A stretch of DNA of 64,000 nucleotides from assembly GCA_910890315.1 (NCBI GenBank), contig CAJVGD010000002.1, positions 1,860,001 through 1,924,000 on the forward strand, written 5' to 3'. Under the pieces are notes generated by a model that saw only the letters and a program-made list of their open reading frames with translations, was not told where the DNA came from and did not search any database. This stretch comes from Serendipita indica DSM 11827 (Eukaryota > Basidiomycota > Agaricomycetes > Sebacinales > Serendipitaceae). How positions within the stretch are numbered: the first letter of the stretch is position 1; the number at the start of each line of letters is the position of its first letter. The position numbers and the translations under genes are program-made. Below are positions 20 through 31,238 of the stretch, piece by piece.

Positions 20-1496
20 TAAACTCTGAGCCACCGCCGGCTCCAGAGCTTCCGATTTCCCGTCAAACGTTATTATATGGACACACCCAAGAAGTAAATG
101 AATTATTCATGGGATGATGATGGTGTCTTATGCCGTCTCAGGTCTTCTGTGTCTCTTGGGCTCCTGAATACGCAGATCACGTCCTATTGGCATCAGGGTA
201 TGCGGCTACTACCGAAATATTTGTTGTGATTTACGTTCTCATAGATCAAAAGATAGCACGGCCAAAATTTGGAAGTTCACCGGCATCCACCATGGAAACC
301 TGGCCACACAACTGCTAGACTCCATAGAACACTGTAATGAAGAGGGCTACTCAGGGGAAGATGCGGACGTCACCTGTGTGGATTGGTCCTCGGACCACCT
401 TTGGTTGGCCACAGCAAGTTCAGATCACTTCGTACGAATGTGGAGCGTGGGAGAAGGCAAACTCAAAGCGACTCTCAAAGGACACACGGATTCTATAGCT
501 GCTGTCAGATTTTCGCCTGACAGTCATTTCCTTCTCAGCTCTGGGTACGATGGCGTGGTAATTCTCTGGTCTTTGCCTGCGATGAGAGTCCAGCATCGGT
601 ACGAGGATGGTGCCAACAGTACGTCGACCATTCTTGAATACTCCTTTTATTCAACGTTTATAGAAGCTTTCGTGGCCGACATCTCATGGCTCACCAACAA
701 CAACTTTATAACCACATGGACGGACAATCTGATCCATGTCTTTACTAGTTCGTCGACCATACCATTCCGGACGTTCCGTGGACATACAGATGAGATCAAC
801 TCAGTACGTGGCTCTCCGGATGGCAAGTATATCGCATCTGTTTCGGACGATTTAACCGTTCGCATCTGGAACCTTGAGACTCTGAGGATGGAATTCAAAG
901 AAGGAAGTCTACGACCGATCGCAGGCAGTGTCGGAGGGAACATGGGTCAAAACTGTATCCACACCCTACGAGCCCATAAGAGCTCGATAACGAGTTGTCG
1001 ATGGCTCCAAGCAGATTGGATCTCAGGCTCATCATCGACGGATGGTGTCAAGCGACTCGCAACGTGGGTGGATATCATTTCCATGAATTACGCATTTATC
1101 CTTTGCAGAATGAGCGACGGTGGGGAGCTTGGACCAGCTGTTTGTCTATGGGACGCAGTAGCTGGTGTGCTACTAAAGTCGTTCAATGATCATTCAGCTG
1201 TGACTTATGGGCTCTGTTTCCATCCAACTTTGCCCTATATGGCGACTGGTGCGATGGACGGTCGGCTGTACATTTACGATCTCAAGGTGAGAACACTACG
1301 CAAATCGAATGGGCGCGTTCTCATGACGTTTTAGACGCTTGAGATGATATGGTCTTGGACGGACCGCACAGAGCCATCGAGCAAAGTGGCAATCTACGAG
1401 GTTGACTGGAGCAATGACGGGAAGCGGCTGGCCGCTTGTCTCTCTAACGGTGCTGTCGCGGTTCTAGATGTAACCAATCTCGAAAATTCGAGCTGA
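20..1496 (+). CDS. TBL1: TBL1/Sif2-like WD40 co-repressor subunit (5' partial)
   Basis: WD40 propeller of the TBL1/TBL1XR1/Sif2 type, the scaffold that links histone deacetylases in SMRT/NCoR or Set3C co-repressors in the nucleus. The order and spacing of repeats follow TBL1: GHTQEVFCVSW, ADISWLTNNNFITTWTDN, then FRGHTDEINSV, HTLRAHKSSITSCRW and a last blade ending AVLDVTNLENSS at the stop. Introns inferred at 94-141, 198-244, 619-663 (45 bp, in frame), 1064-1108 (in frame) and 1287-1334; removing them restores continuous blades. The N-terminal LisH/F-box-like half lies upstream of the window or in its first bases. An insertion of about 20 residues precedes the CIHTL blade. Its stop is 125 bp from the convergent DCAF11 stop. 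TBL1 type is firm; the complex it joins is inferred. Confidence 0.8.
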
Positions 1497-8234: not shown

Positions 8235-9797
8235 ATGAAGTCCCTTGCACTTCTTTCGATCTCTGTGTCGCTTCTTCCTGCTGTACTGGGGCAGCAAAGT
8301 GCCTGGGGGCAATGTTTGTATTTCAGGAGACGTTGACGAGTATTGACTTGTTCCAGGTGGTGGGCAAGGGTGGACAGGACCAACGACGTGTGTCAGTGGA
8401 TATACGTGTGTCTATTCCAACCCCTGTAGGCAGACCCATGCTCCATCCTTTCGACTTGCTGATCAACAACAGGGTATTCTCAATGTATCCCAGGGTCAGC
8501 TACGGGAAACACAAGCACGGGATCGAGCACGAGGCCAACTTCTAGCAGCAGCACGTCTCGGACGTCCTCTAGCACATCATCTGCCCCAGGGACATCTGGG
8601 ACGGGAACGGGAAAGTTCTGGTTCAGCTTCGGGGACTCGTATACGTGAGTGATTAAATCTCAATCATGCTTCATGTGCTGAGCCTCTAGTCAAACTGGGT
8701 TTTCGTATTCCGGAACTCAGCCTTCAAACAGCAACCCGTTCGGCAACCCGACTTACCCTGGTATTTGGATCGATTCTTCAAGCTTGCGTCAACTAACGAC
8801 CTATAGGCAATACGCCCTGTGGAAGCAATCCCAACTGGATTGACTATGCCGCCACCACTTACAATTCTGGCATCGTCAAGGTATGTAACCCTCATTAACA
8901 TGTGACAAGGATCTAATACGCCCCATATTATAGGTGTATAACCATGCATTTGGAGGAGCCACCATCGATGCGTCGATTGTCGCCCCTTGGTCTAGTAAGC
9001 CCCCAGAGCTCTATACGGGTTGTCACTTATACTCTCTTCTAGACACTGTGAAGACTTTGGTTGGTCAGGTCAACGATTTCCTGAACTACAACGCTCCTGG
9101 CAAGACGTACTACCCTAGCTGGTCTTCATCCAATACTTTGTTCAGTGTCTGGATCGGCATCAAGTAGGTGATCACCCTTGGTCATTCTTATTTTGACCCT
9201 TTGCAGTGATATTGGTCAGGCCTATTGGCGAGGTTCTGTGCCGAATATGGACACCCTCATGAACCGCTACTTCCGTAAGCATTTCAGGGCCATGGCGCAT
9301 TAATCTTATTATTATTTTCAGAACTTGTGCAGTCGATGTACAACGTTGGTGCAAGACATTTCTTGTTCCTCACCGTGCCGCCTGTTCAGCGTTCACCTTT
9401 GGTAAGCCTCCCCACTTTAGCTATGCTTGTTCTCAACAAAATAGATGCTCGGTCAAGGATCAACGAATACTGCCAATCAAAAGGCCGTCATTGCCGACTA
9501 CAATGCGAAGCTCAAAGCCAAGGCTGCTTCCTGGGCAGCTTCCAATGCGGGAGTAAGAAATCTCGTCCCAGGTGATTGCGTAAATCTGATTCGTTTTAGG
9601 CGACTGCTTTGGTCTACGACACCTCGACCGTGGTCAACGCCATTCTCGACAACCCATCTGCCTATGGACTACGTGACGCAACCTCTTACGGATCTGGAAA
9701 CACGTACGCATGGTGCGACAACTATCACATCTCCCCTGTCGTCCACAAAGCACTCGCCGCCGACCTATCCAAGCTTATCAAGGGCACTTACATCTAA
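8235..9797 (+). CDS. Secreted CE16 (GDSL) acetylesterase with N-terminal CBM1 cellulose-binding domain, copy 1
   Basis: Signal peptide MKSLALLSISVSLLPAVLG, then a fungal CBM1 starting QQSAWGQC and completed over two introns (GGQGWTGPTTCVSGYTC, then WYSQC; four cysteines, aromatic triad). A Ser/Thr-rich linker leads to the catalytic domain: block I FSFGDSYT with the nucleophilic Ser, NHAFGGATIDA, VWIGINDIGQAYW (block III GxND) and the C-terminal CDNYHIS holding the Asp-x-x-His pair. Ends SKLIKGTYI at 9797. About nine exons separated by 50-60 bp introns. CE16 enzymes remove acetyl groups from xylo-oligosaccharides; secreted, acting on plant cell walls. An inverted paralogue lies at 29567-31238, on the other side of the six-cysteine family cluster. 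Confidence 0.88.
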
Positions 9798-10171
9798 GTG
9801 AGGATGAGAGTGTATTCTATTCCATGGCTGAGCCTTTTCAGGTTACCTGAGGCTGATTCAAGGGGAAAAGATTGACGACTTGCTCCGGCAGTCGTTGCCT
9901 GTAGATAAAGCACCATCATTACAGATTCCTATACGCCTTGGTGAAAAGAAACGTAAGATACTGTGTCTCAATCTCCGGACCGGGCAGTTCCACGCAATAT
10001 AAACAGCCACGCGTAAATGATACTCTGCTTCTGCCAGTTTCAGGATACGCGGCTCGAGTTGTTCATGATCACAATTTGCTTTGTAGACGACATATTTGGG
10101 ACGACTTGATTCTAATAATCGGATTCAGAAGCAGGTTTACAATGCTAGGGCGATATAGCTAATTTATCTAA
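9798..10171. other. Convergent intergenic, no gene seen
   Basis: 374 bp between the 3' ends of the CE16 and TMEM256-like genes. No coding signal. Confidence 0.5.
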
Positions 10172-14803: not shown

Positions 14804-16852
14804 TCATCGCTTCTCATATGGATACTGCTGCGCGCCAGCATCGTATCCAGGAGGAGCATCACTCGGGATCATACCGCCACCTTGTTTCGGCGGTACGGGC
14901 GGGGCTGCCCCAGAGGGTAATGCACCAGGCATCCCGCTCATCCCCATCCCACTTCCACTACTCGCTTGCCTCACCGGGCCGCCGCCATAGGTATTCAAAG
15001 GCATCGGCGCAGGTGTTGGGATCGCGGGTGTCGGCGTCGTCGGTGGGACGTTCATTCCAAGTGGCACATCACCACTGTTCACGAGTGTGTTCCCCGGCTG
15101 GTTCCACGGCGGGGCGACATGTCCGATCGGAGAGTGTTGGGATGGTTGCGGTGGGTAAAATGGATTCGTCTGCGGTTGGCTGTACGGATCATGATATCCA
15201 CCTTGTTGTTGTTGAGGTGGAGATTGTGTACGCGCGTAGGGTTCCGAGTATGCCTGGGACGGTTGTTGGTATGCGTTACCGTATCCTTGATTTTGTTGGG
15301 TATATCCGGCGTCGTATCCCTGATTCTGGTCGTACTGAGAAAAACTCGATGGTTGGCCAGTCTGGTGGCTGACGGCAGAGTGATCTACGACTCGTTAATA
15401 AATGTACCAAGAATTGAAAGCAGCAGTGAAACGTACAAGATGTCTGGCGCGCACCGTGGCCATATACTTCGCCAACGGCTGCTCCTCCAGGTGTCAAATA
15501 TTGCTGAGACACTTGGGCGACTGGCATAGGTGGCGGTGACGAGGACGAGGCATGCGGATTGTATCCGCCGGTATATCCCATGGCAGAGTGTTGGCTACCT
15601 TGCCTATACGGTTGATTCGGTCCACTTGGGAACGCAGGAGCCTGCGAGGCATTGTTGTTGTACGCATCGATGCTTCTTGTACCTGGGGGACCTTGCATAT
15701 AGCCACCACCATACTGCGGTTGAACTTGCTGGACACCACGTCCAGCATGATTGCTCGTATACGTGGTGCTAACGCTGCCTCTTCGCTGAGGGCTTCCTGA
15801 AGACATTCCAACTGGCTGATAGGGAGGCTTGTGCGGTGCACTGACGGCTCCTTCGTCCTCTGAGTCTTCCTCGACGTAGTACTGCGCATCGCCCGATTTT
15901 TGCTTCAAAGGTCGCGCTTCTGCATTGGTCGGGAAAGCTGGAAGACCAACTTCTGCCTGACGGGCTTTGCGATCGTTTTCTGCTTTGATCGCCTCGAGAC
16001 GCATGGCCTCGCTGTGCGAAATACCTCCTGTCTCCATTGGTCCACTTTGACCAAAACCGCCGCCATTGTACCACTTCTTGGACTGACCCTTTGGCCCACG
16101 GGGTCGACTGGCGAAGCAGCATCGCCCGATACCAAAGAAAAAGCCGGCGAGGAAGAGCATGACCCAAGCGGCAAGGGTGAGCCACAAAGCATTGCCAATG
16201 TTTGCAGCACCACCAACTGCACGTATACGGGCACGAATGATGAAAAAGAAGATGAGGTCGAAGATGAAGGCAAGGAGTGTCACAGAGGCTGCGAGACCGG
16301 CGATGCAAGAGGAGAAGCATGTCATGGCCATTTCACGGATATGTGCCAAGAGTCCAAATAGGGCGGATACTGCGGCCAAACCGAGCCCGACGATGTGGAG
16401 GACGAGGACATAGGTGAGCCACTTGACTACGACGTTTGGAATCTCGATGTTCAACGGAAGATTGAGTCCTAGAAGAGCGTTTGGATCTATAATAGATCAG
16501 AATCAATCAGAATCAAGAGAGTAGCATGCGAGTCAATGGGTGACTGCTCGAGTGCTATCACACGGTTATGGATCAACGCGGTGCTAGCCCTTGGGCTCGG
16601 AGTGTTACAATGACAAAACGACGCACCGAATTCCCATCCTACGGTAGCATTTGAGCACGCAGTTGAAGAGCCCGTCTGCAAACAGTATCCAAGGACACCA
16701 AAGGTTGCAGTTCCCTGAACGCCCTCGTGGTTGATTGTTGCACTCAGAAAGTAGAAAGACTTGAGGAGTGGGACTGAAAAGGATGCGAGCGCGAGACAGA
16801 TCGTGGCGGCGAGCGTGACGGCAAAGCCTGGAGTTGCTGGGCGGAATACCAT
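14804..16852 (-). CDS. palI: PalI/Rim9-like membrane protein of the ambient-pH (PacC/Rim101) signalling pathway
   Basis: SUR7/PalI family protein. Exon 1 (from 16852) gives MVFRPATPGFAVTLAATICL, helix 1, then a cysteine-bearing loop (GYCLQTGSSTACSNATVGWEF). After an intron come DPNALLGLNLPL and three helices: VVKWLTYVLVLHIVGLGLAA, CIAGLAASVTLLAFIFDLI and NALWLTLAAWVMLFLAGFFFG, followed by CCF and a long cytoplasmic tail very rich in P, Q, G, Y and S, with a further intron near 15385-15435. Ends QQYPYEKR at 14804. In ascomycetes PalI assists PalH in alkaline pH sensing at the plasma membrane. The four-helix core and P/Q/S-rich tail fit PalI better than plain SUR7. Confidence 0.75.
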
Positions 16853-17168: not shown

Positions 17169-18041
17169 ATGCGACCATTCCTGTTGTTTTCACTCCCTCT
17201 GGGAGCTACTGCTCAGCTCGTCCGAGATGGATTCGTCAGTAATGTTCCAGATTGGACCGGATTATCCATGTTTGTGGCCAGGTGGGAGCCTCTCTGTGGC
17301 GAACTTACCGAAACATGGGCAACAGGAAACAACGCTCCAGATTGCATTCCGGCGATGTACAGCTACAGCAATGACACCCAGTTAACGCTCGGATTATACG
17401 ATTACTTTGGCGTCCGTGTCATGAATGCTGGCATTGGACTTGGGAGGCCACTTTGCTTGTGCTTTTCATTGCGCTCGCGGATTGTGGCCACTCAACAGGA
17501 GGATATTTGCTGGAATTTTGATGGAAACGGGGTCGTTGCAACATCTGCCAATGGCTATGTGACTGGGAGCTGGAGGATCGGCACAAAATCGCTTCCTTGG
17601 TGTACAGGAGATGGCCCTTCCACGCTCGTCAATGCATGGTCACAGACCGCTTTCTTCCCTTCCTCCGCTGGATCCACACAGGCACCTAATTCGACACAAA
17701 GCGGTAAGTCTCATCCTATAGCCATCGATTTCGCTAAATCGTCTCGACAAGGCCTACCAGTGATCAACTCGACTGGAAACAGGCGCACGACACTGGCCGT
17801 CGGACTCAGCGTGGGGCTCACCGTTGGAATACTTGCAATCGCTGCGCTTGTCGGGTTCTGGTTCTGTCTGAAGCATCGAAGGCGCCAGCCTTCGGGTAAT
17901 CCCGGCGCACATACGGGACCATATCCTCAAAATGCGCCATATCCTACGAATGCACCATATCCTACAAATGCGCCATATCCTACAAATGCGCCATATCCTG
18001 CAAATGGAACCCAAAAACCTCCTTTGAACTCGCGTTGGTAA
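17169..18041 (+). CDS. Six-cysteine type I membrane protein, family member A
   Basis: Signal peptide MRPFLLFSLPLGATAQ, then an ectodomain with the core shared by four genes here: RDG-x-V-x-NV, RWEPLCGEL, CIPAMYSYSNDTQ, GIGLGRPLCLCFSL, DICWNFDGNGVV, GSWRIGTKSLPWC and WSQTAF. Six cysteines in the order C-C-CxC-C-C suggest three disulfides. A phase-1 intron (17704-17751, in frame) separates the ectodomain from a short stalk, a glycine-bearing helix (VGLSVGLTVGILAIAALVGF) and a basic stop (KHRRRQ). The tail carries a hexapeptide repeat N-A-P-Y-P-T encoded by five 18 bp units, unique to this member, and ends NSRW. No known family recognised. A surface receptor or adhesin role is inferred from topology only. 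Confidence 0.75.
   Translation: MRPFLLFSLPLGATAQLVRDGFVSNVPDWTGLSMFVARWEPLCGELTETWATGNNAPDCIPAMYSYSNDTQLTLGLYDYFGVRVMNAGIGLGRPLCLCFSLRSRIVATQQEDICWNFDGNGVVATSANGYVTGSWRIGTKSLPWCTGDGPSTLVNAWSQTAFFPSSAGSTQAPNSTQSGKSHPIAIDFAKSSRQGLPVINSTGNRRTTLAVGLSVGLTVGILAIAALVGFWFCLKHRRRQPSGNPGAHTGPYPQNAPYPTNAPYPTNAPYPTNAPYPANGTQKPPLNSRW
17919..18008 (+). repeat. Five tandem 18 bp units in the tail of family member A
   Basis: Units begin ccatatcct and encode P-Y-P-x-N-A; units at 17919, 17937, 17955, 17973 and 17991. Units three and four are identical and the others differ at one to three bases, so the array is recent and probably length-variable. Confidence 0.85.
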
Positions 18042-18623
18042 AAGTGAGTCTTTTCTTCAATGGTGAATTTTTTGCTCATTGTCACTAGTCATCTCTCTAT
18101 GAGCAATAGAAACTATAATGAATACATTGTTTTATCCCATGAGCCTGTCATATGTGAACGCACAGGCGGTTTTCGCCAACCCGTTAGATTCGCTTGCACC
18201 GCAGGATAGGCGGCTTTCCTTGGGATCACATATGAGGGATACACCATCGAAAGTAGAGCTTCAAGGATCGAGAATGATCAGTTTCCGGTTGGTATGCTTC
18301 AAATTCGAGGTGGACAATTAGTGGGAGTACTGCAAAAAAGGACATGAATTTCGACAGGATTCTATCATCTCCTTCGGGAGTTAGATACATTGCCATCCAT
18401 ATTCAGCTCATTGTCGGGCTTGGCCCATCCGGCTGGTAACGCATACCCAAACATAATGTCATTTTCGAACGTGTAGCAAGTTTAATTCAAGACATATGGA
18501 CAGAGCTGGTCGAAAATACCAAGAATGGCTACCAGCCACAACGCATCTGTGCCAGCACGGGTGGTCAACATTCCTATAAATCCCCTTGGACCCACGACGT
18601 ACACATTTCATCATTAGAACAAG
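18042..18623. other. Intergenic between members A and B
   Basis: No gene. A 21-26 bp segment at about 18247 (gaaagtagagcttcaagg) recurs at about 20431, next to the left direct repeat. The member B promoter lies at the right end. Confidence 0.45.
18574..18581 (+). promoter_or_regulatory. TATA-like box ctataaat of member B
   Basis: Lies 43 bp before the start codon. The preceding gtgccagcacg also occurs upstream of member C, so the promoter is conserved between paralogues. Confidence 0.5.
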
Positions 18624-19493
18624 ATGCTAATCCTTCTCACCCTCATTACATTCCTGCTCTCGACGACCAGTGCACAAGTTCAAAGGGACGGACCGGTCGC
18701 CAATGTCTCAGGATGGGACGGACTGACATATACCGCGGCTCGCTGGGAGCCTTTATGTGGTTCGCTCACACGTACGTGGCCACCAGGCAGTAACTGGAAC
18801 GGATGTGACGCTGCTATGAACGGCTACAGCAACGATGTGCGAAGAACTTTTGGGCTCTACGACCGCACAGGCGTCTTACTTGAGAGGGTTGGTGTAGGCC
18901 TTGGAATCCCCCTCTGCATGTGCTTCTCGTTGGGCATGATTGCCACAAACGAAAATCTGGACATATGTTGGGGATTTGAGTCCAGTGGAGTTGTAGTCGC
19001 AAACGGCCTTGGTGGGGTTCTTGGGAGCTGGAGGATTAGTGGAAAGGCTCTCCCTCGTTGTACGGACGCCAATCTAGGATCACTGGAAGCGCAGTGGTCT
19101 CGAACGGCGATCATGCCCTCGTACACAGGATCAGTTCTTACCTTTGGCCCAAGCACGGTGACCCAGCTTCGGACAGTGACGCTCACCCCTACCAGTACGT
19201 GATATTGCGGCTATGGGGATATCACCCAGCTCACGCTCTTGTTAGGTCAGGTCGTCCCTGAGGCCGGTCGTGTGACTGGCTCTGGAAGCCAAGGCCAAGG
19301 GAGCTCTAGTGCAATGAAGTTGGGGCTGGGAATAGGCATATCTCTCGGCATCCTTGCCTTGGTGGTTCTGATCTGGCTTCGCTTGGGCAAGCAGAAGCGG
19401 ATTACTGCTGGGAAGCACGGAGATGGAATACCTGCAAGTCAGAGGCCGTCTTACCGAGCACCGATAAATACGAACCCCACATGGGCTTATTAG
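18624..19493 (+). CDS. Six-cysteine type I membrane protein, family member B
   Basis: Signal peptide MLILLTLITFLLSTTSAQ, then the family ectodomain with cysteines at residues 45, 61, 98, 100, 115 and 146: RWEPLCGSLTRTW, CDAAMNGYSND, GVGLGIPLCMCFSL, LDICWGF, GSWRISGKALPRC, WSRTAIMPSYTG. A phase-1 intron (19195-19245) follows TLTPT. Exon 2 encodes a Gly/Ser-rich stalk, a glycine-rich helix (LGLGIGISLGILALVVLIW), a basic stop and a tail ending NTNPTWAY. Compared with C and D it lacks the Ser/Thr stalk after the intron. Exon 2 and the downstream flank form the left direct repeat that brackets the NLR gene; a degenerate copy of exon 2 is at 25612-25857. Function unknown. Confidence 0.78.
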
Positions 19494-20422
19494 AGGCAAA
19501 TACCCGCCTTCTGATAATCTTGGCCACTCACCAACCCTGCACAGTCGTGGATAGAAAACGACATATCTCTATGACACAGAATAGCGAGATTGCGGTCATG
19601 GAAATATCGTTTGACGAGGCAACCTAACTATCAAACACCCCGATGGACACCTCTCCTTTCCCTTTCGCCTGATTTAGACAGACATATCACTCTTTTCACC
19701 ATGAATAGTACCAAATACACATAATCGTTCACAAATATCCTATGCAGCCGTCTGCCGCGTCGCTACGCTCAATCCCCGCTTTCGCCTCTCGCCGCCTTCC
19801 CTCTTGCTATTCGGGACATCTCCCGTTCATATTACTGACTAACAGCTCGATGAGGTTTCTCCTTCATAGGTTCTTCACCTCCCAACTCTTCTGGATCCTG
19901 TTTTGTTTGCCACAAGGCCATGTCCTTTCTTTGCAGATTCGTTCACTTTCCCTAACACTTGCGAACGGATTCACTATGAAAGCTACCTACTTTTGCATTG
20001 TGCTTTTTTTGCCGTCCAAAATATGTGCTAAATGTCTCCCAGATTTTTGTCCTTCCCAATCTACACTACATATCGGTGTCTATATCTCTCCTCGTCTCCC
20101 TAAAGTCTGAGAATATCAATCCTCATCAAAGAGCTCTGGTTCACGACGCACTGTGGCGAGCCAATACTGCTACATTTAATCTACTATTGCTGTTCAACGT
20201 CAACTCGTCCAACTTGACCAGCAAGGCGTACTCAATCACGCTATCCCTCTTCATATTGAGTTCAAATCGGGTGAATAGAGCTGGTAGAGAACACCAGAAT
20301 GGGCGATCAGTCTCAGTGTATATGCCAGTAAGCACGAGGCACCAATGTGACTATAAATACCGTCAAAATCAGACAGAATTTGTTAAGCAACCTCTCCCAC
20401 AGGATGCAATTCGTCATTACTA
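19230..20422 (+). repeat. Left ~1.2 kb direct repeat bracketing the NLR gene
   Basis: Homologous by eye, with small indels, to 25596-26773 in the same orientation. It starts in the member B intron (ctcacgctcttgttagg) and carries member B exon 2, its 3' flank (cagccgtctgccgcgtc, ttcacctcccaactc) and a sequence matching the member C promoter with its box ctataaat (20351-20358) and first codons (atgcaattcgtcattacta). Homology then stops, so the left copy holds only the first few codons of a C-like gene. Confidence 0.85.
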
Positions 20423-20522
20423 CACAGCACCGAAAGTGGAGCTTCAAGGGTTGATAATAATTCTTCATTGGGTGACGCATGGTAGAAACGTATGTTGACG
20501 TGCCAATAATCATGACAAGTCA
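19494..20522. other. Intergenic: repeat flank and truncated promoter, no intact gene
   Basis: Mostly the left direct repeat. Open frames here (for example at 19742) are not kept in frame in the right copy, so they look non-coding. Confidence 0.55.
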
Positions 20523-23500
20523 TCAGTCGATATCTGTTTGAACGTTTGTCCAAGATGGGCCACATTGAAAGTTGGTGAAATCAATTCTGGTAGGTCGGAA
20601 TCGGCTTGTCGTCGGTATCGTCAGAATATGAGGATATACCAGTCCATTCCGGTTGTCTGGTGGCACCCAGAAGAGAACTTTATTGGAAGATCGTACCCAG
20701 CCATCCTGAGATAGTGAGCACTGATTGAATCCAGGAACGGTGATTTTCAGCGGAATATCCTTTGACCCTTCTGCGAGACTGGTCAGATTGCCACCATAAG
20801 CAATGATAGGTCGAAAGTAAAACTGACTATTCTCTGTATCCCATAGTGGAATCGTGCTGACTTCCGAGCCAGAGACGATTTGTAGAACATCTGGTGAGAA
20901 TCCGAGGGACTTCGCCGAACCTTCACGACCTCTAAGTGCCTTTCCCAATGGCTGGTTCGTATCTGCCTCCCATAATCGAACCGTGGTATCTTCCGAGCCA
21001 GAGACGATTAGCGAGTTATCCGGCGAGAATCCGACGGCTGTCACCCAACCTACGTGACCTCGAAGTGGTTCTCCCAGTGGCTGGCCAGTACCTGCCTCCC
21101 ATAGTCGAATTGTCTTGTCGGAAGAACCAGAGACAATTCGTGAGCCATCTGACGAGAATTCTACGGCCGTCACCCAACCTTCATGTCCTCGAAGTGGTTC
21201 TCCCAATGTCTGGCCAGTGTCCGCCTCCCATAAACGAATTGTCCTGTCGACCGAGCCAGAGACGATTATTGAGCCATCCGGCGAGAATCCGACAGCTGTT
21301 ACCCAACCTACGTGACCCCGAAGTGGTTCTCCCAATGGCTGGCCAGTACTTGCCTCCCATAGTCGAATCGTCTTGTCGGAAGAACAAGAGACAATGCGCG
21401 AGCCGTCTGGTGAGAACCTAACGGCCGTCACTGAAGCTTTATGACCTCGGAGTGGCTCTCCCAATGGCTGGCCAGTGCTTGTCTCCCATAATCGAATCGT
21501 CTTGTCGGAAGAACCAGACACGACTCGTGAGCCGTCTGGAGAGAACCTGACGGTCCTTACCGAACCTTCATGTCCTCGAAGTGGCTCTCCCAATGGCTGG
21601 CCAGTAATTGTCTCCCACAGTCGAATTGTCCCGTCGGAAGAGCCAGAGACAACTTTTGAGCCGTCTGGCGAGAATCCAACGGCCCATGTAATTCCTTCAT
21701 GACCCCGGAGTGGCTCTCCCAATGGCTGGCCGGTTTCTGCCACCCATAGTCGAATAGTTTTATCGGAGGAACTAGACACAATCTGTGAGCCGTCGGGAGA
21801 AAATCCGACAGCCGTCACCGAAGCTTCATGACCTTGGAGTGGTTCTCCCAAAGGCTTGCCAGTGTCTGATTCCCAGAGTCGAATTGTGCCATCTGCAGAG
21901 CCAGAGAGAATTCGTGAACCATCTGGAGAGAACTCAACGGCCATTACCCAAACTTCATGACCTCCCAGTGGCTCCCCCAATGGCTGCCCAGTGGCTGCCT
22001 CCCATAGTCGGATCGTTCTGTCTTTCGAGCCCGAGACAATTCGTGAGCCATCTGGGGAGAATCCGACAGCCGTCACTGAATCCTCATGACCTCGGAGTGG
22101 CTTTCCCAGTGGCCGGCCAGAGTTTGCCTCCCACAGTCGAATGGTCCTGTCTTCGGAGCCAGAGATGATTCGTGAACCATCTGGTGAGAATCTAACGGTC
22201 CAGACAGTTCCGTTATGGCCTTGAAGTGGCTCGCCGAATGGCTGGCCGGTGTCTGCCTCCCACAGTCGGATCGTCCTATCGGAAGAACCAGACACAATCC
22301 GTGATCCGTCTGGAGAGAATCTGACAGCCGTCACTGAAGCTTCATGACCTTGGAGTTGTTCTCCCAGAGGATGGCCAGTGTCTACTTCCCATAGTTGAAT
22401 CATGCCGTCTTCCGAGCCAGATATGATCTGTGAGCCGTCTGGCGAGAATTCGACGGCTGCCACCGAATCCTTATGACCTCGGAGTGGCTCTCCCAATGGC
22501 TGGCCAGTATTTGCCACCCATAGTCGAATAGTTCCGTCTTTTGAGCCCGAGACGATTTGTGAGCCGTCTGGAGAGAATCCGACAGCCGTGACCGAATCTT
22601 CATGACCTCGGAGTGGTTCTCCCAATTGCTGGCCAGTTTCTGCCTCCCACAGTTGAATTGTTCCATCGGAAGAGCCAGAGACAATTCTTGAGCCGTCTGG
22701 TGAGAATGATGCCGCAATAACACCGCCTCGTGGAACTCGAAGAACTCTGGGAAGCCCGGAATACATTTTCTCCAGGCCCCGAGTCACAGTGAGCGTTCTT
22801 GTATACTTCATTCGGCCCTCCACATGCATTATTGACTCCTTAGGAGCAAACGGCAGCGCTGAAATGTATATATGTGGGACGCTATCCTGGATTGGGATGG
22901 AAAATGCCATCATAAATCGCCGGATCTCGGTCATTCTGTTTCTTGTCTCCTCTTCAAGCTATTTCTGTGTCAGTATCTGGAGCCCGTTTGAAAATATTAC
23001 TTACCCTTGCATGGCGTGTAATTGCCTGAAGACCCTCTATCGCTCGTGGCACTCCTATCGTAAAACTTAGGATCTCCATCCAGTATAGTGTATATGATGT
23101 TTGGACAATGCATTTAAGTTCCTTCTTGAGTATGCCTCGCCAGCTGTCGTTGGTTTCTGCTACATGGAAAGCCCAATGGGAGCTCGCGTACTGAAGCATT
23201 CTTGGAATACACTTTGATATTCTGTCATCGAGATTTGGAATCTGCCTATTGAGGCAAAAAGATGACTCGATTTGACATATGTTAAACTTGAGACCTTCGG
23301 CGCGTGAAGTCAGGCGGTTAAGACACCAAGATGCTGCTTGCCCATGCGCGTCCGAGTTTGATAGAGACTCTATTGATAGCTGGGGCCATGGAGCATCGCC
23401 GAAGGTATTCGACAAAGGTGGGATGCCGAAATTGGATTAATTTTGTATTTGGGTCCATACTCAATACGCTTCCCAGATTCTGTACCAACGCCTTGACACT

Positions 23501-25309
23501 TCCACGCACTTTGACATGCGTGAGAATGTCCTGCAGCTCATTGGCAGTGAGCGGGTCGAATGCCGCGAGGAGGAGAGCAACCACTTTACACATAGGTTCT
23601 TGAGCCTTTGGGTCTATCCGCTCGAAGATCAGGCTATATACGTCGTCTATATCTCCCGCCTTGTCCACTGAGATTAGGCAATCATAGGTATTCTCGGGGG
23701 TGTCCCAGGTAGCTTCGCTGTTCAGCATTCGGCACGCAGTACTCGCCCAGATGAACAGTCCTCTGGCCTTTTCGACCAGCCGCTGCCTTCTGTCAGGAGG
23801 TAGAACTCCGTCTAACGATCGATTTATATAGGTGGCGATGTCATCAACGTTATCTGAATGGCTGACATCGTGGAGACGGTCCTCCAATTTCGCCTTGATT
23901 GAGAGGGACCCCAAGGTCGATTGAATGACAGGATCCGGTCGACTTGTCATGAATATCTTCAGGATCTTGCACTCTCGAGCAGCTGTGCAAAGTGTTTCGA
24001 GAAGCTGTTTCCGCTGCGATCCAGATTTACATTCGTCAACAGCGTCGATGACGAGGATCACACGCTGCTGCCAATGAAGGAGAGGACCAGTGACGAGCAT
24101 CTGAAACTGCTCTCCAAGAGAGTTTTGCATGAAAGACGGATTGCGCTTGATGGCATCAGCGATATGCTGCGTAAGCTGGGGAATGTAATGTGCAAGGTTT
24201 CTTGCAATGGTCGAGCAGAATTTGTCGGTCGTGGATCCCTCGCTACTGGCTATGGAGAAGAAGAATCGGCCGCCTAGCGCTCCTTCCCTCTGCCATGCTT
24301 CTAACGCGGAGATTGCGACGGTGGATTTACCAGAGCCAGCGATGTCACAAAGCCAAAATATTGGCTTGTCCGACCGCTCATCCAGGGCCCAGTGCCGGAT
24401 CATTTCCAGAACGGTCTCCCGCGTTCCTTCCATGCAAGGACTATGAACTGAGGATGCGGCGAAGTCTACAATTGGCAACTGAAGTATTGCAGCGGCGTCG
24501 GCTCGAAAATGCTAAGCAAGCATTCCGTACAGGTTTCAAACTTACCTTCCGCCTTGATTTTTTCCATACTGGCTTTGGAAGTCTCTTCCATCGCCTGAAT
24601 GCGTAACGCGATGAAAAGAGTCAGTGCGCTCTATACTTATGGTCAACATATGAATAAGACTGGTAATGCTCGCACAATCAACTGTCTATGTCGGTCCTCA
24701 ATATCCCGATTGAATCTACGGATCTCCTCTGCATCAGTCCTCACTTTAGACATTGATTTAAACAGGCCGAATTTCCTGCGGCTACGTTTCTCCTGCAGAT
24801 TATCTACTGTTTGTTGCATCCCTTTCAGGAGCCTGCATTGTTCAGCCTATGAAATTACATTTAAGCTGCTCACGTACTCGATGTAGTGGGTGAGCGGTCG
24901 CTTGATGGCCTCATGGATGGCCCTGTCCTCTGGCGGGTATTTTTCGATTAAGGCGATCTGTTCCTCGAGTGCGATAATGTATTCTTCCAAACGTCGCGTC
25001 AGGTCTGTCCATTCCTCCTGATTGCTCTCTATCGTCTGTTTTGTTCGTTATAAGAATCCGCTGTATGTCCCGGCTTCGCCAACCCACCCGCATAATTTCG
25101 AGGACCGACTTCGCAGTTTTACAAGCTGCTTTGAGAGGAGCAAGTATATCTGAACCCTCGGTTACATTCGCCACCACATCGAGACCGACATTGACCGTAT
25201 CATACACTTGATGCTTCTTGCTTGACGAAACCTCAGCGATAGACGAGTATCGAGATGAATTTACACTCCTATACCATTTATTTGTCCTGTCTGACCTTTG
25301 GGTAGACAT
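20523..25309 (-). CDS. NACHT-WD40 NLR-type (STAND) protein, HET-E/HET-D-like
   Basis: Start near 25309 (MSTQRSDRTNKWYRS; exact base uncertain). The N-terminal helical domain (DTVNVGLDVVANV...LAPLKAACKTAKSVLEIM, then ESNQEEWTDLTRRLEEYIIALEEQ after an intron) is the type found before NACHT in agaricomycete NLRs. Further introns lead to HSPCMEGTRETVLEMI and the NACHT domain: P-loop DIAGSGKSTVA (near 24330), Walker B ILVIDAVDEC, sensor FMTSRPDP, then a winged-helix-like part and RHPTFVEYLRRCS. Next are a linker (CLNRLTSRAEGLKFNICQIESS...LYWMEILSF), an intron, and an 803-residue frame with 14 near-identical 43-residue WD repeats plus one degenerate repeat. Such proteins act in fungal self/non-self recognition and programmed cell death. 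Near 23370-23385 the frame changes within a conserved stretch: a true frameshift, an assembly indel or a 34 bp intron. Confidence 0.85.
20790..22724 (-). repeat. Array of about 15 WD40 repeats, 129 bp unit
   Basis: Fourteen units with the pattern V-x-A-V-x-F-S-P-D-G-S-x-I-V-S-G-S-x-D-x-T-I-R-L-W-E-A-x-T-G-Q-P-L-G-E-P-L-R-G-H-E, each exactly 43 codons, and one degenerate unit at the C-terminal end. Differences fall mainly at the first three residues after the G-H pair, at x after F-S-P-D-G-S, after S-G-S, and between E-A and T-G. Confidence 0.92.
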
Positions 25310-25595
25310 CGTAGTAGCGGACCAGTCCAAGATGTAGTCGGCGTCAACTTGCCAGCCTCACCGAGATGTCAACATAATCACCACATGACAATGTTTGATA
25401 AGCCCACTTATTACTCTTTAATCCCGATGTTCTTAGGAGAACGACCCCTCGTAGGCAGGTAATCATCCTCGCTTCGCCGGTTTTCCCTTCTGGGCATGAG
25501 GGTTTCCTTCCGCTCTAAACTCCCTCACTTTGTGCTCTTCTAGTTTTGGCTAGGTCCTGGTGCGCGTTGTGACCTCTTTGCGTTGTTCTCCTCGG
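25310..25595. other. NLR upstream region
   Basis: About 290 bp between the NLR start and the right direct repeat; presumably the NLR promoter. No gene. Confidence 0.45.
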
Positions 25596-25611
25596 CTCAT
25601 ACTCTTGTTAG

Positions 25612-25857
25612 GTCAGGTCGTCCCTGGGGCGGGCCGTGACTGGCTCTGGAAGCCAAGGCCAAGGGAACTCTAGTGCAATAAATTTGGGGCTGTAAACTGG
25701 CTCATCTCTCGGCATCCTTGCCTTGGTGGTTTCGATCTGGCTTCGCTTGCGCAAGCAGAGGCGGATTACTGCTGGGAAGCACGGAGATGGTATACCTACA
25801 AGTCAGGGATCGTCCTACCGAACACCGATAAATGCGAACCCCACATGGGCTTATTAG
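25612..25857 (+). pseudogene. Exon-2 relic of a member B-like gene
   Basis: After the acceptor-like ttgttag, the sequence follows member B exon 2 (caggtcgtccctg, ggctctggaagccaaggcc, cttgccttggtggttt, ending acatgggcttattag) but has an in-frame stop (gcaataaat in place of gcaatgaag), small indels in the helix region and no exon 1 upstream. It is a non-functional fragment created with the direct repeat. Confidence 0.8.
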
Positions 25858-26702
25858 AGGTGAATGCCCGCCTTCTGATAATGTTGGCTAGTCACTAACC
25901 CTGTACAGTTATGCATAGGAAACGACATATCTATGGCACAGGGAAACAAGAACGCAAACATGGAAATACCCTTTGATGAGACAACCTAGCCACCAAACGC
26001 GATGGACACCCTTCCTCTCCCTTTCGCCTGATTCAGACAGACATATCAATCTTTTCGCCATGAATAGTACCAAAAACACGCGCTCGTTCACAAAAATACT
26101 CTATGCAGCCGTCTGCCGCGTCCCTAGGCTCAATCCCCGCTTTCGCCTATCGCCGCCTTCCCTCTTGCTATTCGGGTCATATCCCATTCATATTACTCAC
26201 TTTAGGCCCGCTGAGGTCTCGCATTCATGGGTTCTTCACCTCCCAACTCGTCTGGGTCCTGTTTGGTTTGCCACAAGGCCCTGTCCTTTCTTTGCAGATT
26301 CGCTCTTTCCTTTACAATCTCAGATAAAGCTAAGATAAAGTTGCCAGGGCTTCTAGGTGGTTCAACATTGTCTGCTTTTCTTACCGTCCAAACGATCGGC
26401 GCTAAATGTTCCCCAAATTATTGTCCCCACTCCATCTCTGATACGTTTCTATGTCTTAATGTCTACTAGTCTCCCTAGAGTATGAAACGTATCAATCCAC
26501 AGCAAAGGGCTCCCCTTCGTCGAGTGCTGCAGACTTAGCCGGCTATTCCTGTTCAAGCTCAACTCATCCCACTTGACCAGCAAGGCATACCCAATGACAA
26601 TATCGTTCATCATGTCGATTTCAAATCCGATGAATAGGGCTGGTAGAGAACACCGAAATGGGCGATCAGCCTCATGTGTGCCAGCACGAGGCATCAATCT
26701 GA

Positions 26703-26710
26703 CTATAAAT
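26703..26710 (+). promoter_or_regulatory. TATA-like box ctataaat of member C
   Basis: 46 bp before the start codon, the same spacing as in member B; also kept in the left direct repeat at 20351-20358. Confidence 0.5.
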
Positions 26711-26755
26711 GCCGTCAAAATCAGACAGAATTTGTTGAGCAACCTCTCCCACAGG

Positions 26756-27719
26756 ATGCAATTCGTCATTACTATCCTCGCACTCTTGCTCTCGACCACC
26801 AGAGCACAAGTTCGGAGGGACGGACTAGTCGTGAATGTCCCAGGATGGGAAGGAATGACATACAATGCGGTTAGGTGGGAGCCCCTATGTGGTTCACTCA
26901 CGCGTACTTGGTCATCTGGATATAGCTGGAGCGGGTGTATCCCCGCAATGGACAGCTACAGTAACGATACGCAAAAACCTTTCGCCCTTTACGACCTCTC
27001 AGGTATCTTGCTTGAAAAGGCAGGCGTCGGGCTTGGAAAGCCCGTCTGCATGTGCTTCTCACTGGGCGTGATAACGACGGGGGAGAAATTGGACATATGT
27101 TGGGGGTTTGATCTCCATGGCGCTGTCATCGCCCAGGGTGGGAGTGGCGTTGTATATGGCAGCTGGCGGACCAGCGGCAAGGCTCTTGCTCGTTGTGCGA
27201 ATGTCAATCTCGCGTCGCTGGAAGCGCAATGGTCTCAAACAGCAGTCATACCTTCATACACGGGAGCGGTCCAAACACTCAATCTGGGCCCTAGTACAGT
27301 GACCCAAGTTCAGACGGTCACGATCACTCCCACCAGTGCGTAGCTGCTCTCGACCCATCGTCCAGCTTATGCTTTTGTCAGTTGCAACATTCAACGTTAC
27401 TTCAACTACCGTGTTTACTGGTTTCAACGGTCAGATTGTCACTCAGCCAGTCACGTATGTGACGACAGCGCCGGTCATTGGCTCCGGAGGGTCAGCTGGA
27501 GGATCATCTCAAGGAAATTCTGACGGCTCGAAGAAAATTGGACTTGGAGTTGGATTAGGGCTCGGCATCCCGGCCCTGGTGGCTATCTTTGGGCTTTGGC
27601 TGTGGGTAGAGGACCGTAAGCATAGGCGTATTATGTCTGTACAGAACGGGGGTATACCTGGTAGTGGGGGTGCTCCCATAAACCCAGTTAACCCAAATCC
27701 AAGGTGGTCTCGAATGTGA
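26756..27719 (+). CDS. Six-cysteine type I membrane protein, family member C
   Basis: Signal peptide MQFVITILALLLSTTRAQ, cysteines at residues 45, 61, 98, 100, 115 and 147, with RWEPLCGSLTRTW, CIPAMDSYSNDTQ, GVGLGKPVCMCFSL, LDICWGFD, GSWRTSGKALARC and WSQTAVIPSYTG. A 46 bp phase-1 intron (27336-27381) follows TITPT. Exon 2 encodes a Thr/Ser/Val-rich stalk (ATFNVTSTTVFTGFNGQ), a Gly/Ser linker, a glycine-rich helix (LGVGLGLGIPALVAIFGLW), the juxtamembrane WVEDRKHRR and a tail ending NPNPRWSRM. The start was chosen over an upstream in-frame Met (26573) because it begins the signal peptide and lies 46 bp after a TATA-like box. Closest to D in the stalk and tail. Function unknown. Confidence 0.78.
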
Positions 27720-28390
27720 ATATATACATTTGCCTCCATTTTACTCACTCACCCTGCACAGGTAACATAACAAATATTGTATCTTACGCGATGTCATATT
27801 ATGAGGGTTTCATTAGATACGTTTGGCTCTATAGAAACTGAGAGGAGCCGGCGAGCAAGCTGTTCACAGAGATCAGACCATGTCACTTGCACAATTAAAG
27901 CGTAACTGAGCGTGCCGGTTTGAAAGGGCATACGATAGTATGGAATGTCTGTAGTCGAGAGGAGTATTCACCTGAATATCCGGCCAATCACTATCCTTAT
28001 CGACAAATGCAAATTCTCCCAGGTACTCTGATTAAAGAATATCATACCAGACGGTGGCTACATAAGGGCACTATCATAGACTTGGTCATGTCTCATCGAA
28101 AAAGAAAACGCAAGGTTTTCGTCAATATATGCATTTATTCATACCGTTCTATCTGGGATTCAACACCCGAACATCTCAGAAGTAACAGACCCAGCTTTAT
28201 ATGGAAAATGCTGATCTAACGGTCCATCCCTTCACAAGGATGTGGTCCGCTGGTCGACGTACTGGACAACTGAATAGGCTGTTTGGCACGACCGTCGCCT
28301 CGCGCTGTTCACGTTCAAGGGACCGATTTCAGGCTGTATGGGATATAATATAACGTCGAGACCCCGCTCACGACCGATCAGCGTTGTCCG
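27720..28390. other. Intergenic between members C and D
   Basis: 671 bp without a supported gene. A TATA-like gatataatata lies about 50 bp upstream of the member D start. Confidence 0.45.
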
Positions 28391-29343
28391 ATGGCCATGC
28401 AGTCCCAAGCCCTTTTCTTCCTTCTTCTATCGTTCTCTCTCGCGGCGGCAGAGATTGCAAGAGATGGCTTGAATGCAAATATCGGAGGATGGACCGGATT
28501 GACCTTCCAGGCGTCTCGGTATGAGCCTCTTTGCGGCTCGCTCGCCAGCACGCGAGCCCCAGCCGATTCGTTCACAAACTGCATCCCGGCCATAGACAGC
28601 TACACCAACGATACACAGACAACACTGGCATTCTACGATATCTCTGGTGTGCGACTTTCTGGTACAGGGGTCGGTCTCGGAAAGGATCTCTGCATGTGCT
28701 TCTCGCTCAGTACTCTTTCTGATGCAGAAAAGCTGGACATCTGTTGGCACTTTGACGGGAATGGAGTCGTTTCCCGTGATTGGCAGTATCAGCAAGTCAT
28801 GGGCAGCTGGAGGACAAGCGGCAAGGCACTTCCACACTGCGCCGACGTCAATGTCCCATCTCTTCAGGGAGAATGGTCCCAGACGGCTTTTATGCCGACG
28901 TATACTGGGGTGATCCAAACTCTCAATCTTGGCCCGACGACTGTGCATGTGACGGAGGTTGAAACACAGACTATTATCTTGACACCTACTGGTGAGGAGC
29001 AAGAAAATGTTGGTCTTTTGCACTACTGACGTCCCTAGTTGCTACATTCAGTGTTTCGTCTATCACCGTCATCACCGGATCTGACGGTCAAGTCACAACC
29101 CAGCCAATAACCTACGCGACCGAAGCGGCCGTGATAGCCAACGTCCCAAATGGTGGTGGAGGAAACTCTGATTCGTCGAAGAGCGTTGGGCTTAAACTAG
29201 GACTGGGCTTGGGTATACCTGCACTTGCCGCCATCGTCATCTTTTGGATCTGGATAGAGGACCGTAAGCACAAACGAGCAATCAGAGCCCAAGGGAATGG
29301 TGGTGTACCCGTCAATCCTAACCCAACTTGGGCTCAAAGATGA
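28391..29343 (+). CDS. Six-cysteine type I membrane protein, family member D
   Basis: Signal peptide MAMQSQALFFLLLSFSLAAA (a second Met at codon 3 could also serve). Ectodomain: RYEPLCGSLASTR, CIPAIDSYTNDTQ, GVGLGKDLCMCFSL, LDICWHFDGNGVV, GSWRTSGKALPHC, WSQTAFMPTYTG. A phase-1 intron (28992-29038) follows ILTPT, at the same place as in B and C. Exon 2 gives the stalk ATFSVSSITVITGSDGQ, a linker, the helix LGLGLGIPALAAIVIFWIW, the juxtamembrane IEDRKHKR and a tail ending NPNPTWAQR. Six cysteines at family positions. The next gene is the inverted CE16 esterase, convergent at 29567. Function unknown. Confidence 0.78.
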
Positions 29344-29566
29344 ATCCTCAGATTCACTACCTCAAAGTAACACAAGGAATGAATAACGACCTAATTTCTT
29401 CTGACTTGGACGATATATGAGCCGACCAGCTTGAAAATTCCGTAGCCAGTAGCTGAATAATGACAGTATCTACACCAATGAGAGCTGCGGTAGCCACTTT
29501 TCAACTCCGAAGCAACCTGGCGCCAAAAATGAGCGGAAGAAATGGTCAGAGAATGGAAGTATTCAC

Positions 29567-31238
29567 TTAGATGTATGTCCCCTTGATCAGCTTGGAGAGG
29601 TCGGACGCCAATGCGTTGTGAATAACTGGACCTGTAATGATCGTTAGAAATTCACAAAATAAAGGACTTTACTGACTAGGGTGATAGTCGTTGCACCACG
29701 CATAGGTATTTCCTGAGCCATAAGAGGTGGCGTCTTGAAGACCATAGGCAGAAGGATTGTCAAGCACGGTGTTGAAGGCGGTAGAGGTGTCATAAACCAG
29801 TGCAGTTACCTAGAACAGCTTGATCAGTTGGATCCAGATGACGGAGTGAAATACTCACTCCCGAATTTGCAGATGCAAACGCTGCGGCCTTGGCTGCCAA
29901 TTTGGAGTTGTAGTCTGCGATGACAGCCTTTTCTGTGGCCGTTACAGAAGAGCCTTGGCCGAGCATCTGATTTTATCAGATATACAGAAAAGTCGTACTG
30001 AGAGGTCATACCAGAGGGGAACGCTGAATAGGGGGAACGGTAAGGAACAGGAATTTCCTTGCACCAACGCTGTAAAGAGATTGCACGAGCTCTACAGATG
30101 ATCAGAGACCTTGAATTAATTGAGGCTGAACTACTCACGGAAGTAGCGATTCAAGAGAGTGTCATCGAACGTCGTTGCATCGGATCGCCAGTAGCTGTTA
30201 CCAATGTCGCTACAAAGGGTCAGATTCGAAGCTATTTTGGAATAGATACTTACTTGATGCCAATCCATACACTGAAAAGTGTATTTGAGGACGACCAGCC
30301 AGGATAGTACGCCTTGCCTGGGGCATTGTAGTTAAGAAAGTCGTTTGTTTGGTCCACCAAAGACTTGACGGTGCCTGAGATGGGAGTAAATGATGAGGTA
30401 TAAATAAACTTCTGGCCTTACTCGTGTAAGGCGTAACAAGATTCGCGTCAATAGTCGCGCCTCCGTACGCATGGTTATACACCTTATAAAGTGTATGAGT
30501 ACCGGATGTTACCAGCGTGGAAGACGCTTGAGTACCTTGACAACGGTCGAGTTGTAAGTAGTGGCGGCGTAGTCGATCCAATTGGGGACGCTTCCGCAAG
30601 CCGTGTAGCCTGAAGAGAGTCAATCGAGGTCATTACATGAGTAATGAAGAGCCCAATACCAGGATAAGTCGGGTTGCCGAACGGGTTAGTGTTCGAAGGC
30701 TGAGTTCCGGAATACGAGAATCCGGTTTGGCTAGAGGAATCAGCACATGAAGTATAACTAAGCTTTAATCACTCACGTGTACGAGTCTCCAAAGCTGAAC
30801 CAGAACTTGCCTGTTGCGGTTCCGCTGACGCTCGGTGCAGATGAAGTGCTAGAGGATGTTCGAGACGTGCTTGAGCTCGTCCTTGTACTGATACTGCTCG
30901 AACTACTCGACGTCTTGCTGGTGCTACTGCTCGAGCTACTCGATGCCTTGCTTGTGCTACTGGCGGTCGTCGACGATTGGAGACACTGTGAATACCCTAC
31001 AAATCGTCAATTGAGCAAAAGGGTGAGCGATTCGACTTGCAAGGGTTTGAATAGACACACGTCCATCCGCTGACGCATGTCGTGGGTCCTGTCCAATTTT
31101 GCCCACCGCCTATATGTCGAGATCAATGCTTGTCGACGCCTTGTGAAGAAAAAACAGACACTGTCCCCAAGCACTCTGTTGTGCTAATACGACAGGAACG
31201 AGTGACACAGAGATCGATACGAACGCCCAAGATTTCAT
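29567..31238 (-). CDS. Secreted CE16 (GDSL) acetylesterase with CBM1, copy 2 (inverted)
   Basis: Paralogue of the gene at 8235-9797 on the opposite strand. Signal peptide MKSWAFVSISVSLVPVVLA followed by QQSAWGQC, CBM1 exons (GQNWTGPTTCVSGWTC), and a Ser-rich linker with more S/T repeats than copy 1 (SSSSSSSTSKTSSSSS). Catalytic landmarks: FSFGDSYT, YNHAYGGATIDA, VWIGIN and, near the C-terminus, CNDYH followed by ASDLSKLIKGTYI. About nine exons with introns in the same places as copy 1. Secreted; predicted to deacetylate xylan-derived sugars on plant walls. Together the two copies bracket the six-cysteine/NLR block in inverted orientation. Confidence 0.87.

What the first reader, a model, noticed from the sequence alone, without database searches (positions are those of the whole stretch)
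17169..29343. Four-copy family of six-cysteine receptor-like proteins with no recognised relative
Members A-D share a signal peptide, an ectodomain with six cysteines in a fixed order (in C: 45, 61, 98, 100, 115, 147, i.e. C-x15-C-x36-C-x-C-x14-C-x31-C), invariant blocks (RW/YEPLCG, SY-S/T-NDTQ, G-V/I-GLG, DICW, GSWR), one helix and a short tail. A phase-1 intron lies at the ectodomain-stalk border in all four. The family looks like a tandemly expanded lineage-specific surface protein; ligand and role unknown. Topology and pattern are seen; receptor/adhesin role is inference.
Basis: partly seen in the sequence, partly recalled or inferred. Interest (0 to 1): 0.85.

Follow-up and report, generated by a model that had tools for sequence, protein, structure and literature searches.

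The report
Tandem family of six-cysteine surface proteins
A fungus-like stretch of DNA carries four intact-looking copies and one broken copy of a gene for an anchored cell-surface protein whose outer domain matched nothing in the libraries searched; it is built like known fungal cell-wall sensors, but its role is untested.

Summary
Four two-exon genes (A 17169-18041, B 18624-19493, C 26756-27719, D 28391-29343, + strand) encode proteins with a signal-peptide-like start, a six-cysteine ectodomain (53 of 152 columns invariant), a Ser/Thr-rich stalk, one membrane helix and a short basic tail; a phase-1 intron is in all four. B-C comparison shows purifying selection. The ectodomain matched no Pfam, NCBIfam or PDB sequence family; no relative turned up in viral, prokaryote, phage or plasmid collections; AlphaFold models are too poor to name a fold. 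No fungal collection was available, so restriction to Cantharellales is untested. Corrections: cysteine spacing varies by one residue in A and B; the SYSNDTQ block is altered in B; the intron lies 33-50 residues beyond the sixth cysteine. Best reading: a type I surface sensor or adhesion family, Wsc/Mid-like in architecture, with an uncatalogued head, evolving by tandem duplication, recombination and loss.

The parts
17169..18041 (+). Gene A, 271 aa; exons 17169-17703, 17761-18041; shortest stalk, tail with APYPTN repeats, extra Cys214
18624..19493 (+). Gene B, 272 aa; exons 18624-19194, 19246-19493; lacks the NDT sequon (has another at N27)
20184..20422 (+). 5' remnant of copy X: C-type upstream region plus first 19 nt of coding sequence (ATG at 20404)
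20423..25594 (.). 5172-bp stretch standing in place of the middle of copy X (most of exon 1 and part of the intron)
20523..25309 (-). NACHT (NPHP3_N) gene with 14 WD40 repeats of 43 aa, opposite orientation, inside the stretch above; 25309 is the likely ATG by eye, exon structure not settled
25595..25858 (+). 3' remnant of copy X: end of intron and exon 2, B-type (90.2% identical to exon 2 of B), with a 2-nt gap against B and a stop
26756..27719 (+). Gene C, 305 aa; exons 26756-27335, 27382-27719
28391..29343 (+). Gene D, 301 aa; exons 28391-28991, 29039-29343
26807..27283 (+). Six-cysteine ectodomain of C, first row of the alignment used for contig, PDB and fold searches

Best explanation
A to D are paralogous type I plasma-membrane proteins. 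The N-terminal signal sends the chain out; six cysteines, probably as three disulphides, hold a compact ectodomain of about 150 residues; a Ser/Thr-rich, probably O-mannosylated stalk carries it through the wall; one helix with an invariant GxxxGxxxG motif anchors it and probably pairs or clusters it; a short basic tail, ending in an N-P-x-W motif in B, C and D, reaches the cytoplasm. The most likely working is that of Wsc/Mid-type sensors: the head contacts a wall or contact-surface glycan, the stalk transmits tension or proximity, clustering through the glycine zipper brings tails together, and the tails recruit a cytoplasmic partner. The copies arise by tandem duplication and recombination between copies and are lost by disruption. 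Shown: open gene structures with consensus splice ends, cysteine conservation, hydropathy, zipper and tail conservation, purifying selection for B-C, the chimeric broken copy. Inferred: secretion, disulphides, glycosylation, dimerisation, ligand class, signalling.
For: Membrane-helix hydropathy peaks 2.08-2.51 in 4 of 4 (shuffles reaching the peak: A 1, B 0, C 49, D 26 of 500), N-terminal 12-residue hydrophobic stretches of 1.74-2.93, stalk Ser/Thr 0.29-0.38 against 0.12-0.18 in the ectodomain. Of 9 invariant columns beyond C residue 170, 6 lie in residues 247-258, including Gly 247, 251, 255; the zipper is in 4 of 4. NDT sequon in A, C, D. Ectodomain dN/dS B-C 0.22 (bootstrap 0.13-0.37); pN below pS in 1000 of 1000 bootstraps for each of the 3 of 6 pairs bootstrapped. 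A Pfam match to Mid2 (PF04478; E 0.006 and 0.007; 16.8 and 16.6 bits against a cut-off of 23.2, so below threshold) covers stalk and membrane part of C and A. Wsc/Mid architecture as in passages of PMC9148135.
Against: No match to WSC or another known domain. No ligand, expression or localisation data. Shuffles reach the hydropathy peak of C in 49 and of D in 26 of 500, and B has a second hydrophobic window inside its ectodomain (2.01 at residue 89), so the single helix rests also on position, zipper and the basic flank. Tails are short (28-62 residues beyond the peak window) and no Rom2-type binding motif was tested. Only B-C has unsaturated synonymous sites. A plain adhesin would look the same.
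Confidence: 0.4

Rival explanations
1. Adhesin or surface lectin without signalling: the head binds glycans of the fungus's own wall, a partner hypha or plant material, and the tail only anchors it.
For: Ser/Thr-rich stalks and six-cysteine head; tails are short and, apart from the end motif and basic flank, variable; two CBM1-bearing, by eye esterase-like genes lie on either side of the cluster.
Against: Invariant glycine zipper (4 of 4) and the recurring tail end (3 of 4) suggest that membrane and tail parts are selected, not just an anchor; no lectin family matches.
Confidence: 0.28
2. Non-self or allorecognition receptors, with the NACHT-WD40 gene as the intracellular partner, in a recombining cluster.
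For: A NACHT-WD40 gene sits inside the cluster; its repeats vary at, among others, unit positions 2, 18, 20 and 43, a spacing like the positively selected codon pairs 7/9 and 25/27 of Podospora hnwd genes (PMC2873952, passage); copies recombine.
Against: The most variable repeat position is 28, and 5 and 12 also vary, none of which fits those pairs; repeats average 73% identity; ectodomain comparison shows average purifying selection; the NACHT-WD40 gene lies where copy X was broken, which suggests accident rather than partnership; no population data.
Confidence: 0.12
3. Secreted effector-like proteins whose ectodomain is released to act on a plant or microbial partner.
For: Signal-like N-terminus and small six-cysteine domain.
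Against: Membrane helix with conserved zipper in 4 of 4; no sign of rapid average change of the ectodomain; no match in Pfam.
Confidence: 0.1
4. Relics of duplication with little present function.
For: One of five copies is broken.
Against: pN well below pS in the ectodomain for the 3 pairs bootstrapped; four open frames with splice ends.
Confidence: 0.05

Closest known systems
Wsc-type cell-wall sensors (Wsc1-3, WscA; Pfam number PF01822 recalled)
   Same: Cysteine-containing head, Ser/Thr-rich region, single membrane helix, cytoplasmic tail (architecture from PMC9148135 passages)
   Different: No WSC match in Pfam at E up to 5; six cysteines here, eight in WSC (recalled); short tails
Mid2-type sensors (PF04478)
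   Same: Ser/Thr-rich outer part, single helix, an N-glycosylation site; below-threshold Pfam match over stalk and helix of A and C
   Different: [quoted passage not shown] the match is below the curated cut-off and absent in B and D
Podospora hnwd STAND genes (for the neighbouring gene only)
   Same: NACHT plus WD40 array; some variable positions at like spacing
   Different: 43-aa units at 73% mean identity, most variable position elsewhere, N-terminal piece unmatched in Pfam; no evidence of an incompatibility function

Membership tests
Wsc-type sensor | WSC cysteine-rich domain | tested here: not met
   No WSC match for any of 4 proteins at E up to 5, nor for exon 1 of B and D at E up to 1
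Wsc-type sensor | Ser/Thr-rich stalk, one membrane helix, cytoplasmic tail | tested here: met
   Hydropathy and composition, 4 of 4; simple scales, not a trained predictor; weakest for C and D, and B has a second hydrophobic window
Wsc-type sensor | Tail interacts with the Rho1 exchange factor and feeds the wall-integrity pathway | not testable with these tools
   Needs binding and phosphorylation assays
Mid2-type sensor (PF04478) | Pfam score above the curated cut-off | tested here: not met
   16.8 and 16.6 bits against 23.2 for C and A; no match for B and D
Mid2-type sensor (PF04478) | N-glycosylated Asn at the N-terminus, no cysteine-rich domain (PMC9148135 passage) | tested here: not met
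   NDT sequon in A, C, D and another in B at N27, but a six-cysteine head is present in 4 of 4
Any domain in Pfam-A, NCBIfam or PDB | Significant match to the ectodomain | tested here: not met
   Pfam, NCBIfam (one E 0.14 match), PDB sequences: nothing significant. Fold search uninformative because the models score pLDDT 46.5 and 36.8
Cantharellales-specific family | Present only in that order | not testable with these tools
   No genome held, no fungal collection; no relative in viral, prokaryote, plasmid and phage collections, which says little for a fungal gene

The most novel reading that the evidence does not exclude
The six-cysteine head is an unrecognised protein fold, and the family is a basidiomycete class of wall or contact sensors that takes the place of the Wsc/Mid sensors, kept in a recombining cluster that has also taken in an immune-type NACHT-WD40 gene.
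Probability: 0.12. Interest if true: 0.75.

Novelty: new variant of a known kind. Interest (0 to 1): 0.42.

Why it matters
[quoted passage not shown] A conserved, tandemly maintained family with sensor architecture and an uncatalogued head would give concrete candidates, if the organism is a basidiomycete. The broken chimera X also shows how such a cluster gains and loses members.

Tried and rejected
Structure: two AlphaFold jobs with four-sequence alignments gave pLDDT 46.5 (C, pTM 0.52) and 36.8 (D, pTM 0.30). They share a hairpin (about residues 79-101 of the domain) but differ before it (helix 42-52 in one, short strands in the other). The Foldseek search of the first gave 407 matches at E up to 10 and 0 at E 0.001 or better, so no fold is claimed. 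The VIA-align library was not available.

Relatives: patterns plus tblastn in viral contigs (39 and 19 candidate stretches, 0 confirmed), prokaryote genomes (25 candidates, 0 confirmed), plasmids and phages (0). These pattern scans use only a few short peptides.

Literature: 8 searches. Five motif strings of the family occur in 0 papers and one search returned 0 papers; in the listings of the others I saw nothing on this family. Subscription papers are not held. Two papers were opened, passages only (PMC9148135; PMC2873952).

Rfam: no match at gathering score in the window. Positive selection was looked at only by pairwise averages, 3 of 6 pairs bootstrapped; synonymous sites are saturated or nearly so for every pair but B-C. 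Terminal inverted repeats at the ends of the 5172-bp stretch: only a 5-bp match, so no transposition is claimed. Enzymes with an N-terminal histidine were considered and dropped because the likely mature N-termini are not His (recalled criterion).

Full report
What is there. Four genes lie on the + strand between 17169 and 29343. Each has two exons with a phase-1 intron of 46-57 nt and GT-AG ends. The encoded proteins (271, 272, 305 and 301 aa) align from end to end with gaps in stalk and tail; ectodomain identity is 47-66% between pairs, and 53 of 152 ectodomain columns are invariant. The six ectodomain cysteines are all among these. A profile of the four, run against 1660 open stretches of at least 25 aa from the six frames of the window, finds the exons of the four genes (by construction) and one further fragment at 25696-25854 (E 6e-15); the next best is E 0.18.

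Topology. By simple hydropathy each protein has an N-terminal hydrophobic stretch and a membrane-helix peak (2.08-2.51). Shuffled versions of the same protein reach the peak in 1, 0, 49 and 26 of 500 cases for A, B, C and D, so for C and D hydropathy alone is weak; B also has a second hydrophobic window within the ectodomain (2.01 at residue 89), and D lesser ones (1.66). The helix is supported further by its place, by basic residues after it (2-5 Lys/Arg in a 12-residue window), and by conservation: beyond residue 170 of C there are nine invariant columns, six of them in residues 247-258, including Gly247, Gly251 and Gly255, a GxxxGxxxG zipper found in 4 of 4. The stalk is 29-38% Ser/Thr against 12-18% in the ectodomain. 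The sequon N-D-T of the SYSNDTQ block is present in A, C and D; B lacks it but has a sequon at N27. B, C and D end in NPTWAY, NPRWSRM and NPTWAQR; A ends in NSRW after a run of APYPTN repeats.

Selection. In the ectodomain B-C gives dN 0.209, dS 0.941, ratio 0.22 (bootstrap 0.13-0.37). B-D and C-D also have pN below pS in 1000 of 1000 bootstraps, but their synonymous sites are near or at saturation; pairs with A are saturated and were not bootstrapped. In all 6 pairs the third codon position carries the most differences. The copies are under constraint on average; sites under diversifying selection were not tested.

The fifth copy. 19229-20422 (the end of B's intron, its exon 2, and the region up to the start of a next gene) and 25595-26774 (the corresponding region up to the start of C) are 80.5% identical over 1214 columns. 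Copy X therefore began at ATG 20404 and ended at 25858. Its upstream region is 84.8% identical to that of C (other pairs 56-65%, shuffled control mean 60, largest 67 of 50), while its exon 2 is 90.2% identical to B (63-68% to A, C, D) and its downstream region 81.6% to B (other pairs 53-69%). C-type front and B-type back is what an unequal crossover between B and C, or a tandem duplication with break points inside the genes, would give. 5172 bp (20423-25594) now stand in place of most of exon 1 and part of the intron, and exon 2 shows a 2-nt gap against B and a stop. This stretch holds, in opposite orientation, a NACHT gene (NPHP3_N E 1e-25, NACHT E 5e-10) with 14 WD40 repeats of 43 aa. Only a 5-bp inverted match was seen at its ends.

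What it is not, as far as could be tested. No Pfam family matches the ectodomain in 4 of 4 proteins at E up to 5, apart from one chance-level match in C (E 0.15); A and C also give a below-threshold Mid2 match over stalk and helix. NCBIfam gives one chance-level match (E 0.14), PDB sequences none. No relative was found in viral contigs, prokaryote genomes, plasmids or phages, which is expected of a fungal gene and proves little. The fungal origin itself is inferred from CBM1, SUR7 and NACHT-WD40 genes and short introns; neither phylum nor order could be tested. Fungal proteomes may well hold annotated homologues.

Mechanism. The architecture is that of the fungal wall sensors: PMC9148135 (passages seen) describes Wsc and Mid sensors as having a membrane region and a Ser/Thr-rich, O-mannosylated outer region, the Wsc type with a cysteine-rich domain, the Mid type with an N-glycosylated Asn, and both as mechanosensors. 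The present family has a cysteine head of another kind plus a sequon in its block in 3 of 4. It works, most likely, like such a sensor, but it is not a member of either family by the tests run here. An adhesin without signalling is the nearest rival and would leave nearly the same signs in the sequence.

Novelty and value. The family looks like a new variant of a known kind: a type I surface protein with an uncatalogued head. The interest is moderate, because lineage-specific surface families are common in fungi (recalled) and the ligand, partner and spread are unknown.

Noticed in passing
20523-22934 (-): The 14 WD40 units (43 aa, mean identity 73%) vary most at unit position 28, then 2, 18, 5, 12, 20 and 41-43. 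Positions 43/2 and 18/20 have the spacing of the positively selected codon pairs 7/9 and 25/27 reported for Podospora hnwd genes (PMC2873952 passage); 28, 5 and 12 do not fit. It could be a non-self-recognition STAND gene.
   Followed up: partly
20424-20461 and 18241-18278 (+): A 38-column stretch just inside the junction of broken copy X resembles the 3' flank of gene A (local score 20.5 against a largest 15 in 300 shuffles; a 20-mer from it occurs in the window only at these two places with up to 3 mismatches).
   Followed up: partly
29563-31217 (-) and 8256-9801 (+): Two related genes (68% DNA identity over 1566 columns plus a short second match) with a CBM1 domain and, by eye, a GDSL esterase-like FGDSYT block, in inverted orientation on either side of the cluster.
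   Followed up: partly
15279-16454 (-): SUR7/PalI family reading frame (PF06687, E 7e-8) upstream of gene A, divergently oriented: another plasma-membrane protein.
   Followed up: no
17704-17760 (+): The intron of gene A is 57 nt, in frame and without a stop, so an intron-retaining form would encode 290 aa with a longer stalk.
   Followed up: no
17919-18007 (+): Tail of A carries a run of APYPTN-like repeats (18-nt unit) not present in B, C or D.
   Followed up: no
378-1331 (+): A further WD40-repeat reading frame at the window's edge (PF00400, E 1e-37).
   Followed up: no
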